A stretch of 64,000 bases of DNA. It comes from Frigidibacter sp. SD6-1 (lineage in GTDB: Bacteria > Pseudomonadota > Alphaproteobacteria > Rhodobacterales > Rhodobacteraceae). The position numbers were made by a program, and so were the translations under genes. Positions 15,438 to 37,777 of the stretch are shown here, in pieces. The DNA lies in contig NZ_JARJNR010000001.1 of assembly GCF_030143255.1 (NCBI RefSeq), forward strand, positions 310,001 to 374,000. The letters run 5' to 3'. Numbering within the stretch: position 1 is the stretch's first letter; every line of letters starts with the position of its first letter. A model generated the notes under the pieces. The model was not told the origin of the DNA and ran no database searches. It saw only the letters and a program-made list of their open reading frames with translations.

Positions 15438-15546
15438 GGAAAATCCTTCGTGAAGGATTTTCCGGCCCGTCGGCGCGCGGGGCTTCATGAAAAATCCGGC
15501 AGGAAGCCCGGCCTGGGGGCAGAAAATTCTTCGCGAAGAATTTTCT
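15438..15546. repeat. palindrome pair, locus 1
   Basis: Two inverted repeats lie in the spacer upstream of the dehydrogenase gene. One at 15438-15463 has 12-bp arms (GGAAAATCCTTC) and a GT loop. The other at 15521-15546 is a perfect 26-bp palindrome with half AGAAAATTCTTCG. They are members of a family found in four spaces of this window. Confidence 0.9.
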
Positions 15547-15583
15547 TTCGGGGCCGACGTGACGCTTGTTGCTCGCGACGGCC

Positions 15584-16786
15584 TCAGCCGCCCGAGGCGC
15601 TGCAGCGTTTGACCGCGCCCTGCATCGTGCAGTTGCCGCTGCCGAAGCTGCCGACTGCGGGCTTCGCGGGCGCCTGCTCTTCGGCGTCGGCGGTCTCTTC
15701 GGTCGCGCCCTTGCCGAACAGGCCGTTGACGATCGACAGGAAGCCGCCGCCCTTCGCTGTCTCCGCCGCAGCCTCCCCGGCCGGTGCTGCGGCAGGTTCC
15801 GCCGCGCCGCCGATCTGGTTCATCTGCGTGACCTCTGCGGCATATTCCGCCTCGGAAGGCAGCTTGCCCTTGTGGCGTTCGCTCACTTCCTTGGCCCAGT
15901 CGAGCAGCTTCTGGTTATTGTCGATCGCCTCCATGACCTGTGCCGCGCTGTCGGCGGCGACGCGGGCATCGGCCTCGGCCTTCTGCCTTTCCCATGGAAT
16001 GGTGGGCGCGGCAGCACCGATCCCCTCGATCGGCGCGTCGAGAAGGAAGTTCAGCTGGTCGAAGTCGATCGCGCTCAGCACCTCGAAAATCGCCTCGTCG
16101 CGGGCGCGCGCGGTCACCGCGATGCGGATCTGGCTGTTCAGATTGGCCGAGAAGGCGCGGGTGACCGTTGCAGGGTCGGCATCTGGCGCCTCATCCTGCC
16201 CGAAATTCATCACACCGAAATCGCGGCGGAAGGTGACGCCCTGCACCACGGCGAAACCGGTCTTGCCGGACAGGGCCTCGATATTGCCGTTCACCAGCGA
16301 CATGAAGGGCCCGCCCATCATCCCGCCCTGGCCGGCGGTGCGGTCATAATGGATCAGAACGGCGACACTTTCGCCATCCTTTTCATAAACATAGCTCTGG
16401 TCGGTGCGAAGCTTCTGCACCATCTTCCGATCCATCTCCATCAGGGCCGTCAGGGTCGGTTCGTCCTTCAGCTCGTCGGGCAGGGCGACATTTCTATCGG
16501 TGCCGAACAGGCGCTCGTCGGCCTCTCCCCAGACATGGCGGGCCCAGCCATCGGGGGCCTCGGGCAACAGCTCGCGCCGCTTCTGCTGCAAGAGCGCGCT
16601 GCGTTTGGCCTCATCCTCGATCGTGCGGCGATAGTCGAAATAGCGCGCGCTGATGCTCGTCATGTAGGCATCGGCGCCGAAAGCGTTCGGCGCCACTCCC
16701 GCCCGCTTCGCCTGGTTGACATAATCGACGCCCACGGTGCCCGCACCGACAAGGCAGACGAACGCGACAAGAAAGCCTTTTGACAT
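15584..16786 (-). CDS. exported or membrane-anchored protein of unknown function
   Basis: This 400-residue protein has an N-terminal hydrophobic segment (GFLVAFVCLVGAGTVGVDYV), either a signal peptide or an anchor. The body is mixed alpha/beta with a Met/Gly-rich turn (TAGQGGMMGGPFMSLVNG). A charged helical region precedes an Ala/Pro/Glu-rich linker (about 330-380), and the end has two cysteines (GNCTMQGAVKRCSASGG), which could form a disulfide. I chose the start at 16786 (MSKGF), where the signal segment begins. I do not recognise a family. It is probably a single-gene unit. Confidence 0.7.
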   Translation of the reverse strand: MSKGFLVAFVCLVGAGTVGVDYVNQAKRAGVAPNAFGADAYMTSISARYFDYRRTIEDEAKRSALLQQKRRELLPEAPDGWARHVWGEADERLFGTDRNVALPDELKDEPTLTALMEMDRKMVQKLRTDQSYVYEKDGESVAVLIHYDRTAGQGGMMGGPFMSLVNGNIEALSGKTGFAVVQGVTFRRDFGVMNFGQDEAPDADPATVTRAFSANLNSQIRIAVTARARDEAIFEVLSAIDFDQLNFLLDAPIEGIGAAAPTIPWERQKAEADARVAADSAAQVMEAIDNNQKLLDWAKEVSERHKGKLPSEAEYAAEVTQMNQIGGAAEPAAAPAGEAAAETAKGGGFLSIVNGLFGKGATEETADAEEQAPAKPAVGSFGSGNCTMQGAVKRCSASGG

Positions 16787-16936
16787 AGCCGTTCCCCAGT
16801 TTCGGCGCGGGTGTAGGCGCTGAAATGGGCGGAAATTTGACGGTTGGACGACAAGTCGGAGTTTAGAGACAATCGTCGCGAGATCGCGGCGACCGCCACG
16901 GATTGACGAGCGGTTCACGCGCCGCTACTCGGGCGC

Positions 16937-37100: not shown

Positions 37101-37691
37101 CCGCTCGACGACTACCTCCCCGCGCTCCGCCGCAAGCAGGTGATGACGCTTGCCGAACTCACCGCCGCCGCCGAACGCGGGCCGATGGTGGCGAAACTCG
37201 CGGGCACCGTCTCCGCCCGGCAGGAACGCAAGTCGGCCAAGGGCAACCGCTTCGCCTTCGTCTCGCTCTCCGACCCGACCGGGCTTTACGAGGTCACGGT
37301 CTTTTCCGACACGCTCGAGGCCGCGCGCCAGCACCTTGAGCCGGGTCTTGCGGTGGTCCTCACCGTCGAGGCCAACCTTGAAGGCGAGACGCTGAAACTC
37401 CTCGCCCGCGCCGCGCAGCCGATCGATTCCATCGCCGCCGACGCAGTCAGCACGGGCCTGCGCGTCCATGTCGATACCGCCGAAGCCGTTGCCTCGGTCG
37501 CGGGGCTTCTGTCACGCATGGCCGCCGAGATGAAGGGCCGCGCCAAGCCCGGTGCCATCAGCTTCGTCGTCGCCGACCGCGAGACCGGCGCCGAAGTCGA
37601 GGTCTCGGCAGGCCGCGACTTCCCGGTCAATCCTCAGATCAAGGGTGCGATCAAGTCGATGGAGGGGGTCGCGCTGGTGGAGGAGGTCTGA
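34176..37691 (+). CDS. dnaE: DNA polymerase III alpha subunit
   Basis: This 1171-residue replicative polymerase has the normal domain order. PHP domain from residue 1 (FIHLRTHTEYSLLEGAV). Pol3 palm/fingers with the nucleotide-site GPGRGSGAGSLVAYA and the catalytic aspartates in PDFDIDFCMD. Fingers and the tandem helix-hairpin-helix region (NYGFNKSHAAAYAVVSYQTA). A C-terminal OB-fold (about 1000-1080). A beta-clamp-type motif QVSLFGE lies near residue 930. ATG 34176 lacks a clear Shine-Dalgarno and is preceded by the palindrome pair. It is the housekeeping type, not DnaE2. Confidence 0.97.
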   Translation: MSSPRFIHLRTHTEYSLLEGAVPVKKLIGLCEKAGMPAVAVTDTNNLFAALEFSVTAKGAGLQPIVGCQISLGYDPAQPGERPRAPAPIVLLVQSEAGYMNLMKLNSCLYLDAGGELPQVTLDELAAHADGLICLTGGPDGPVGRFLQAGQGPKAEALMKRLAAIYPDRLYVELQRHPGEGGQRPEAERLTERGFIEMAYAMNLPLVATNDVYFPKPDMYEAHDALICIAEGAYVDQQDARRRLTPQHYFKSEAEMAALFADLPEALENTVEIARRCAFAAKKRNPILPRFADDEVEELRRQAWDGLKARLAVIPHSATVEEYEDRLKFELGIIEQMGFPGYFLIVADFIKWAKDHHIPVGPGRGSGAGSLVAYALTITDLDPLRYSLLFERFLNPERVSMPDFDIDFCMDRREEVIQYVQGKYGRDRVGQIITFGALLSKAAVRDVGRVLQMPYGQVDRLSKLIPVEGVKPVSIEKALADEPRLREAARAEEVVKRLLDYGQKIEGLLRNASTHAAGVVIGDRPLDELVPLYQDPRSDMPATQFNMKWVEAAGLVKFDFLGLKTLTVIQNAVDLIRQSGRHLHIAPDGRQLYAPPESAVDEINAIPLDDKASYDLYSAARTVAVFQVESTGMMDALRRMKPTCIEDIVALVALYRPGPMENIPTYCEVKNGLRDLESIHPTIDHILEETQGIIVYQEQVMEIAKVMAGYSLGGADLLRRAMGKKIKEEMDKERPKFIEGAKKTHDVPAKKAGEVFDLLEKFANYGFNKSHAAAYAVVSYQTAWLKANHPVEFMAAVMNCDIHLTDKLAVYKREVDQMGIETVAPCVNRSLATFTVREGRLVYALGALKNVGVEAMKMIVAARATERGEKPFVTLFDFARRVDLKRLGKRPLEMLTRAGAFDVLDPNRKRVFESLDALAAYSAAIHEQSGSAQVSLFGEAGDDLPEPRLAVTNDWLPVERLAEEHQAVGFYLSGHPLDDYLPALRRKQVMTLAELTAAAERGPMVAKLAGTVSARQERKSAKGNRFAFVSLSDPTGLYEVTVFSDTLEAARQHLEPGLAVVLTVEANLEGETLKLLARAAQPIDSIAADAVSTGLRVHVDTAEAVASVAGLLSRMAAEMKGRAKPGAISFVVADRETGAEVEVSAGRDFPVNPQIKGAIKSMEGVALVEEV

Positions 37692-37704
37692 CGCGGCCTC
37701 TCCG

Positions 37705-37777
37705 TCGAAAAATCTTCGCGAAGATTTTTCGAAACTGCCCGGTGACTGCCGAAAAATCTTCGCGAAGATTTTTCGGC
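37705..37777. repeat. palindrome pair, locus 4
   Basis: Perfect 28-bp (37705-37732, half TCGAAAAATCTTCG) and 30-bp (37748-37777, half GCCGAAAAATCTTCG) palindromes share an identical 22-bp core. They lie between the convergent dnaE and phhA genes, so here they could serve as a two-way transcription stop. Confidence 0.9.

What the first reader, a model, noticed from the sequence alone, without database searches (positions are those of the whole stretch)
15438..37777. A family of paired palindromes in four intergenic spaces
Eight near-perfect inverted repeats of 26-30 bp occur as pairs at 15438-15546, 26724-26772, 34095-34155 and 37705-37777. Most share a core like AAATCCTTCGCGAAGGATTT. The arm sequence differs between loci (TCC, TTC, TCT, TTCC, CAATTTTC), but symmetry is preserved in every copy, as if compensated changes keep the fold. 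Every locus carries two copies, never one. They occur in co-directional spacers, inside an operon and between convergent genes, so no single terminator role explains them. Most lack T runs.
Basis: partly seen in the sequence, partly recalled or inferred. Interest (0 to 1): 0.75.

Follow-up and report, generated by a model that had tools for sequence, protein, structure and literature searches.

The report
Paired hairpin repeats at gene ends
Short DNA sequences that read the same on both strands sit in pairs or short rows just after the ends of genes in this bacterium, their two halves change together, and they probably mark where messenger RNAs end, resembling known repeats called REPs but without their usual label or mobility enzyme.

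Summary
All eight palindromes are in the window, in four pairs. They belong to a dispersed repeat family (F1); the window's genome (G000) also holds a second family (F2). My partial catalogue has 51 loci, 44 with two or three palindromes. Tight arrays of perfect palindromes number 16 in 604 kb, and 0 in each of three shuffles.

The elements lie directly after stop codons (median 14 nt) and mostly between convergent genes: 11 of 19 loci in 604 kb, odds ratio 8. Against a sister genome (G004), stems change far less than loops and spacers. Between copies both arms change together: in the 604-kb sample, 112 of 112 freely varying F1 stem pairs are Watson-Crick, 21 of them changed on both sides.

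In the genomes searched, F1 and F2 are confined to G000 and G004, apart from traces of F1. A Roseovarius MAG has unrelated palindromes in the same architecture, four per row in 15 of 21 places.

Best reading: REP/BIME-like elements without the GTAG/CGTC tag or a RAYT transposase (0 of 5 genomes), acting as two-way mRNA 3'-end hairpins. The molecular role and the way they spread are inferred.

The parts
15438..15463 (.). palindrome, type T1 (AAAATCC arm, GT centre), pair 1
   Evidence: perfect 12-bp arms; pair absent from G004
15521..15546 (.). palindrome, type T1 (AAAATTC arm), pair 1, 38 nt after the stop of the minus-strand gene 16786..15584
   Evidence: perfect 13-bp arms
26694..26700 (.). 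left copy of a 7-bp direct repeat CATGGTG flanking the insertion that carries pair 2 (target-duplication-like)
   Evidence: G004, G002 and G003 have no insertion here
26724..26749 (.). palindrome, type T1 (CAAATTCC arm, TTCGAA centre), pair 2
   Evidence: perfect 13-bp arms
26747..26772 (.). palindrome, type T3-like (CAATTTTC arm), pair 2, overlaps its partner by 3 bases
   Evidence: read
26783..26789 (.). right copy of CATGGTG
34095..34124 (.). palindrome, type T1 (AAAATCC arm), pair 3, 15 nt after the stop of the gene ending at 34080, upstream of dnaE
   Evidence: perfect 15-bp arms
34128..34155 (.). palindrome, type T2 ('inside-out' GAAGAATTTTCG arm, GT centre), pair 3
   Evidence: perfect 13-bp arms
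37705..37732 (.). palindrome, type T1 (AAAAATC arm), pair 4, 14 nt after the dnaE stop; conserved in G004
37748..37777 (.). palindrome, type T1 (AAAAATC arm), pair 4; G004 copy has two substitutions in one arm
34176..37691 (+). dnaE (DNA polymerase III alpha), flanked by pairs 3 and 4
   Evidence: Pfam DNA_pol3_alpha 3e-102
37794..38570 (-). convergent gene after pair 4, biopterin-dependent aromatic amino acid hydroxylase
   Evidence: Pfam Biopterin_H 3e-39
26778..28301 (-). ABC transporter ATPase gene immediately upstream of pair 2
   Evidence: Pfam ABC_tran
25614..26696 (-). permease gene downstream of pair 2, same strand
   Evidence: Pfam BPD_transp_2

Best explanation
These are short interspersed palindromic elements of REP/BIME type that lack the usual tag and transposase. 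They are transcribed as rows of small hairpins (stems of about 10-15 bp), mostly two or three, right after the stop codon. Because every unit is nearly its own reverse complement, the same DNA gives the same hairpin on both strands, so one array can serve both genes of a convergent pair. The most likely action is a two-way 3'-end boundary: the hairpins stop 3'-to-5' exonucleases, and perhaps help RNA polymerase release, so each mRNA gets a defined, protected 3' end and antisense read-through is limited. Shown here: location, symmetry, pairing, stem constraint, and lineage-limited amplification. Inferred: transcription of the elements, the exonuclease or termination effect, and the spreading mechanism.
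For: Location: 604-kb sample, 11 convergent, 8 co-directional and 0 divergent loci, against 88, 380 and 89 neighbouring gene pairs (Fisher p 2e-5; against the 16.3% share of convergent spacers in intergenic bases p 5e-5); median 14 nt from the stop codon. Constraint: in 21 orthologous loci, stem pairs are identical in 399 of 419 (18 one-sided changes, 2 gaps), about 2% of bases, against about 14% in loops, 27% in the remaining spacer (399 of 1491) and 17% in positions outside the spacer (361 of 2093, gaps counted as changes). Most of those loci were found by exact patterns in both genomes, which favours conserved stems; in the 7 shared loci of unselected stretches the figures are 10 of 302 stem bases and 12 of 64 loop bases. 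Covariation between copies. The eight window units fold as hairpins on either strand, -6.2 to -18.5 kcal/mol (the overlapping unit was folded from 26749). Precedent: REPs lie mainly between convergent and unidirectional ORFs, close to stops (PMC3733652).
Against: No RNA data. Few have a U-run, so intrinsic termination by each unit is doubtful. Two-sided changes are at least as often transversions (34) as transitions (29) and wobble intermediates are almost absent in G000, which is unusual for selection acting only on an RNA fold and may point to DNA-level arm copying. Wobbles are not commoner in co-directional spacers (1 of 584 cells against 5 of 920), where only one strand needs to fold. Of 15 element loci of unselected G000 sequence whose two flanks were found in G004, only 7 have the element there (my count), so many are dispensable or recent. 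One orthologous locus is divergent in both species. Element-free convergent spacers mostly have no canonical terminator either (67 of 77, against 11 of 11 with an element), so substitution for terminators is not shown.
Confidence: 0.5

Rival explanations
1. Selfish or by-product DNA palindromes: the elements spread by an unknown route (single-strand hairpin intermediate or template switching) and the two arms are kept identical by arm-to-arm copying during replication or repair. Location at 3' ends only reflects where insertions do least harm.
For: Amplified in G000 (T1, up to 3 mismatches: 22 matches, 16 exact) and fewer, partly decayed in G004 (9 matches: 4 exact, 2 with one, 2 with two of which 1 symmetric, 1 with three); an insertion with a 7-bp duplication at 26724; in G000 half-changed copies are almost missing (T1 and B patterns together: 39 exact, 1 with one mismatch, 8 with two, all 8 symmetric, and 6 B hits with three that are asymmetric and chance-like, the reversed control giving 3); more than half of the two-sided changes are transversions (34 of 63); only 7 of 15 loci shared with G004.
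Against: If arm copying alone kept symmetry, orthologous stems should still drift by two-sided changes; none was seen in the inner pairs of 21 loci, and only two could be read by eye in outer arms. Loops diverge much more than stems, also in unselected loci, which suggests selection. No transposase of the REP type was found.
Confidence: 0.27
2. True bidirectional intrinsic terminators: A-tract, stem and U-tract in one palindrome stop RNA polymerase on both strands.
For: T1 units have AAAA before and TTTT after the stem core; strong convergent bias; bidirectional terminators are described (Ju et al. 2019, recalled; only a title phrase was seen, as a search term counted).
Against: Only 1 of 8 window units scores as terminator-like, with no excess over shuffles; T2, A, B and M units have no U-run after the stem; other spacers of this genome carry A-stem-T hairpins of the classical look, for example AAAACCCCGCCGCAGCGGGGTTTT at window 23467.
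Confidence: 0.12
3. Double-stranded DNA sites for a dimeric protein (nucleoid protein, topoisomerase or roadblock factor) that binds palindromes between converging genes.
For: Two-fold symmetry with a free centre, spacings clustered at 23-28 and 42-47 bp, stem sequence conserved between species.
Against: Six unit types (T1, T2, T3, A, M, B), up to three different ones side by side; spacings are not whole helical turns; 2 of 77 loci lie in divergent spacers; protein sites seldom need fully compensated arms.
Confidence: 0.1

Closest known systems
REP / BIME / REPIN elements of the GTAG superfamily (with RAYT transposases)
   Same: dispersed 20-40-bp palindromes, intergenic, 3' of genes, often in pairs, lineage-specific sequence; T1-T1 pairs can also fold into one long hairpin
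   Different: no GTAG tag seen, units nearly symmetric and unoriented, no RAYT (PF01797) in 5 of 5 genus genomes, a 23-25-nt pitch in F2 with up to three different units, and four in the Roseovarius MAG
CGTC-tagged REPs of Alphaproteobacteria (Di Nocera et al. 2013, PMC3733652; abstract, sections 6, 14, 15 and passages read)
   Same: alphaproteobacterial, no dedicated transposase, mostly dimers, between convergent and unidirectional ORFs close to stops; heterodimers with different stems common
   Different: those carry an unpaired CGTC/TGTC/CCTC motif at one end, stems of 8-9 bp and a CCA tail; F1/F2 show none of these and have stems of about 10-17 bp. A pair that looks CGTC-1/dRS3-like occurs downstream of dnaE in another relative, L021
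Bidirectional intrinsic terminators at convergent genes (recalled)
   Same: one palindrome working for both strands between stop codons
   Different: a U-tract is missing or short, and sequence is a repeat family rather than unique to each gene
puf intercistronic hairpins of Rhodobacter (Chen et al. 1988, seen as a reference title in PMC5927463; otherwise recalled)
   Same: a Rhodobacteraceae stem-loop at a gene 3' end that blocks mRNA decay, including inside an operon (compare pair 2)
   Different: single-locus feature, not a dispersed family

Membership tests
REP, GTAG superfamily / REPIN | unpaired GTAG-type tetranucleotide at one end of each unit | tested here: not met
   columns just outside the palindromes are variable, with no fixed one-sided motif
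REP, GTAG superfamily / REPIN | RAYT (Y1_Tnp) gene in the genome, flanked by the repeats | tested here: not met
   0 of 5 genus genomes at E<=0.001; 5 of 14 control genomes positive
REP, broad sense | many dispersed intergenic palindromes at gene 3' ends, often paired | tested here: met
CGTC-REP | CGTC/TGTC/CCTC tag and 8-9-bp stem with CCA tail | tested here: not met
   searches compared by eye with PMC3733652 section 6
Intrinsic terminator | G+C-rich stem followed by a U-tract | tested here: not met
   1 of 8 window units scores, no excess over shuffles
Intrinsic terminator | RNA 3' ends or termination at the site | not testable with these tools
   no RNA data
MITE | one conserved element with terminal inverted repeats and target-site duplication | tested here: inconclusive
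   one 7-bp duplication at pair 2; the other unshared loci gave no clean empty site; F1 inter-unit spacers differ between loci
Known Rfam RNA family | match at gathering score | tested here: not met
   0 matches in window 15000-38000

The most novel reading that the evidence does not exclude
A so far undescribed class of tagless palindrome arrays in Rhodobacteraceae: rows of two to four different perfect palindromes at a pitch of about 24 nt, each lineage with its own sequences, in which both arms are rewritten together by an arm-to-arm copying process, used as two-way 3'-end boundaries and spread by an unidentified agent other than RAYT.
Probability: 0.25. Interest if true: 0.75.

Novelty: new variant of a known kind. 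Interest (0 to 1): 0.5.

Why it matters
Palindromic repeats at gene ends are common in bacteria, but how their two halves stay matched and how untagged ones spread is open. Here two related genomes give a ready test: stems nearly frozen between species, loops free, arms changed in step between copies, and almost no half-changed intermediates in one genome. If the arrays set mRNA 3' ends on both strands, they are a compact two-way boundary element that may have arisen more than once with unrelated sequences, and a possible tool for dense operon design.

Tried and rejected
Chance A+T-rich inverted repeats: rejected. Canonical terminators: rejected for most units. RAYT-driven REPs: no Y1_Tnp in 5 genus genomes; none in G122, G123 or G124, and one match with six stop codons in G121. 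Polarity: in co-directional G000 loci with two unit types, T1 or A comes first in the direction of transcription in 12 of 16 (my count; two-sided binomial about 0.08 by hand), suggestive only. Terminator substitution: 11 of 11 element-bearing convergent spacers lack a canonical terminator by my simple test, but so do 67 of 77 others, so this is no evidence. RNA long-range switch between T1 and T2 arms (X X' X' X): considered, not supported by the folds; T1-T1 pairs do fold as one long hairpin in two loci there. L075's middle palindrome: typed with a 4-nt centre where the unit has 3, so the zero does not test its copy number. Literature: ten of ten paper searches used. None of the titles or abstract starts listed there describes this family; the stem strings gave 28 papers, 20 listed, with unrelated titles. 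Rhizobium RIME elements recalled; one search did not yield their description.

Biases to keep in mind. Loci outside the 604-kb sample and outside the syntenic G004 stretches were fetched because they matched exact patterns, so perfect stems are over-represented there, in the ortholog comparison too. The regular expressions that name a unit type fix the inner stem pairs (about four in F1, up to seven in F2 B), so part of the 1033 cells is paired by definition. Less biased: up to 3 mismatches; unselected loci; F1 pairs 6-12 only: G000 314 of 315 Watson-Crick, 604-kb sample 112 of 112, G004 114 of 119. Three catalogue hits inside predicted genes were dropped before the counts (two in G000, one in G004). 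Gene calls are from my own simple script, not an annotation.
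Full report
The finding checks out. The window (C11:310001-374000 of a 3.9-Mb draft genome, G000; Rhodobacteraceae judged by its dnaE relatives) holds eight palindromes of 26-30 bp in four pairs. In the spacers of 464 kb of the genome, perfect palindromes with at least 40% A+T number 35 against 0.8 expected from shuffled spacers, and 12 of the 21 spacers that have any have two or more. Over 604 kb there are 16 tight arrays of perfect palindromes and none in each of three shuffles.

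Two families make up 29 of those 35 (my count). F1 is the family of the finding: T1 units (AAAATCCTTCGCGAAGGATTTT and variants), T2 units that look like T1 turned inside out (GAAGGATTTTCGCGAAAATCCTTC) and T3 units (CAAATTTTTTCGCGAAAAAATTTG). F2 is a row of A (CCGAAATCTTTGAAAGATTTCGG), optional M (CCGGAACCTTTGAAAGGTTCCGG) and B (CCGGATTTCGNNNCGAAATCCGG), with unit centres 23-25 nt apart. My catalogue, which is not complete, holds 51 loci in G000 and 26 in the sister genome G004; 44 and 21 have two or more units (three hits inside genes were dropped first). Centre spacings cluster at 23-28, 30-33 and 42-47, with single cases at 59, 73, 75 and 83.

Distribution. The loose T1 pattern gives 29 hits in G000, 7-8 in G004 and 2 in G002; 9 of 121 genomes have any hit, and the reversed control pattern hits 2 of 121, none in the genus. 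The F2 B pattern gives 22 in G000, 13 in G004 and none in the other 79 of 81 genomes. The T2 pattern is found in G000 (10) and G004 (4) and in none of G001-G003. In the unselected stretches where both flanks of a G000 locus were found in G004, 7 of 15 loci have the element in both: 4 of 6 F2 and 3 of 9 F1 (my count). At the others G004 has a different spacer, and no half-decayed element was recognised.

Position. In the 604-kb sample, 11 loci are in convergent spacers, 8 in co-directional and 0 in divergent ones, against 88, 380 and 89 neighbouring gene pairs (Fisher p 2e-5; p 5e-5 against the share of intergenic bases). In the whole catalogue the counts are 31, 19 and 1 in G000 and 14, 11 and 1 in G004. 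The distance from stop codon to element has a median of 14 nt, and 100 of 120 distances are 25 nt or less. All four window loci fit: after the gene ending at 15584, after the ABC ATPase gene ending at 26778, after the gene ending at 34080, and between dnaE and the convergent hydroxylase gene.

Conservation. In 21 orthologous loci, 399 of 419 stem pairs are identical between G000 and G004; 18 have a change on one side, 2 a gap, none on both sides. Loops, the other spacer bases and the positions outside the spacer (mostly coding) change about 6.5, 12 and 8 times faster per base. Most of these loci were found by exact patterns in both genomes, which favours intact stems. In the 7 loci of unselected stretches the stems differ at 10 of 302 bases and the loops at 12 of 64, again with no two-sided stem change. 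In the outer arms, beyond the counted pairs, two loci (C11:134246 and C22:227323) show a C-G pair in G000 and T-A in G004, read by eye. The window's dnaE pair is shared; its second palindrome has two changes in one arm in G004.

Covariation between copies. In the whole catalogue, 1029 of 1033 stem cells of G000 are Watson-Crick, 3 are G-T and 1 is unpaired, while 63 differ from the family majority on both sides, 34 of them by transversion. G004 is more worn: 488 of 503, with 6 wobbles and 9 unpaired. Some inner pairs are fixed by how units were named; over the free F1 pairs (6-12) the counts are 314 of 315 in G000, 112 of 112 in the 604-kb sample (21 of them two-sided) and 114 of 119 in G004. 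Whole-genome scans allowing three mismatches give, in G000, for T1 16 exact, 1 with one mismatch and 5 with two, all symmetric, and for B 23 exact, 0 with one, 3 with two, all symmetric, and 6 with three that look like chance, the control having 3. G004 has more half-changed copies: T1 4 exact, 2 with one, 2 with two (1 symmetric), 1 with three; B 16 exact, 3 with one, 0 with two, 6 with three. Half-changed palindromes are thus nearly absent in G000. This fits selection for a hairpin that must work on both strands, because a G-U pair on one strand is an A-C clash on the other; it also fits copying of one arm from the other. Wobbles are not commoner in co-directional spacers (1 of 584 cells against 5 of 920), which is a point for the copying view; the absence of two-sided changes between orthologous inner stems is a point against copying alone.

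Origin. Pair 2 (26724-26772) sits in an insertion flanked by a 7-bp repeat CATGGTG (26694-26700 and 26783-26789). G004, G002 and G003 have the two genes abutting or overlapping there with one copy of the sequence or a variant of it. This is one case only; other unshared loci gave no clean empty site. No RAYT-type transposase is found in five genus genomes.

Elsewhere. A Roseovarius MAG (L091, G122) has rows of perfect palindromes of unrelated sequence at a pitch of about 22-25 nt. One search lists 23 places, two of them the L091 view of places that L234 also covers; of the 21 distinct ones, 15 have four units in a row (two of these with a further hairpin nearby), 11 are convergent, 8 co-directional and 2 undecided at contig ends. 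They were chosen by a match to the outer unit, which was found 29 times with up to 3 mismatches: 8 exact, 0 with one, 19 with two, all symmetric, and 2 with three. L075 has a triple and L060 and L077 have pairs near dnaE; L060's family is multi-copy but oriented and closer to ordinary REP dimers. Of 80 dnaE neighbourhoods, tight arrays occurred in two, so the class is patchy.

Reading. The closest known kind is the REP/BIME group, especially the CGTC REPs of Alphaproteobacteria, which lack a dedicated transposase and share location and pairing (PMC3733652). The tag is missing here and the units are nearly fully symmetric. I take the arrays to be two-way 3'-end hairpins, most likely decay barriers and possibly helpers of termination, at 0.5. 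The U-run test is negative for seven of eight window units, so plain intrinsic termination is less likely. What spreads them is unknown.

Noticed in passing
L091 and G122 loci L230-L249: Roseovarius MAG with rows of usually four different perfect palindromes at about 22-25-nt pitch after genes; variants of the outer unit differ by symmetric two-base changes in 19 of 21 non-exact matches.
   Followed up: partly
window 26690-26795: The insertion with pair 2 separated two genes that abut or overlap in three relatives and, read by eye, supplied a new stop codon and a purine-rich stretch before the next start.
   Followed up: partly
window 34080-34176 versus L135, L140, L141: The spacer upstream of dnaE is a turnover spot: G004 carries about 850 bp and G002 and G003 have other gene-sized sequence there, while the window genome has only pair 3.
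   Followed up: no
window about 23381-23417 (aligned to G004 C21:145233-145269): A long imperfect palindrome TGACATTATGATTGTCGTAATGACATTCATAGTGTCA (minus strand) just upstream of a minus-strand gene, arms similar in both species; looks like a regulator operator.
   Followed up: no
G000 C11:69653 and 99749; G004 C11:1084267; L049 near 7446: Palindromes of a GTAG-type look (GTAGGGTGGGCA...TGCCCACCCTAC) in several Rhodobacteraceae although no RAYT was found in the genus genomes searched.
   Followed up: no
L021 7520-7591: A pair of CGTC/dRS3-like palindromes (GTCATCCCCGC...GCGGGGATGAC) lies downstream of dnaE in this MAG, the same spot as pair 4.
   Followed up: no
L229 (G121 C1:2302158-2302424): A Y1_Tnp match with six stop codons in the genome that carries the L075 triple palindrome, a possible relic transposase.
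   Followed up: no
G000 C11:17060, 98764, 211689, 422826; 99121, 191806, 203004: Two further G+C-rich dispersed hairpin families (CCGGGGG...CCCCCGG and TCCCCTCCCC...GGGGAGGGGA) in spacers of the same genome.
   Followed up: no
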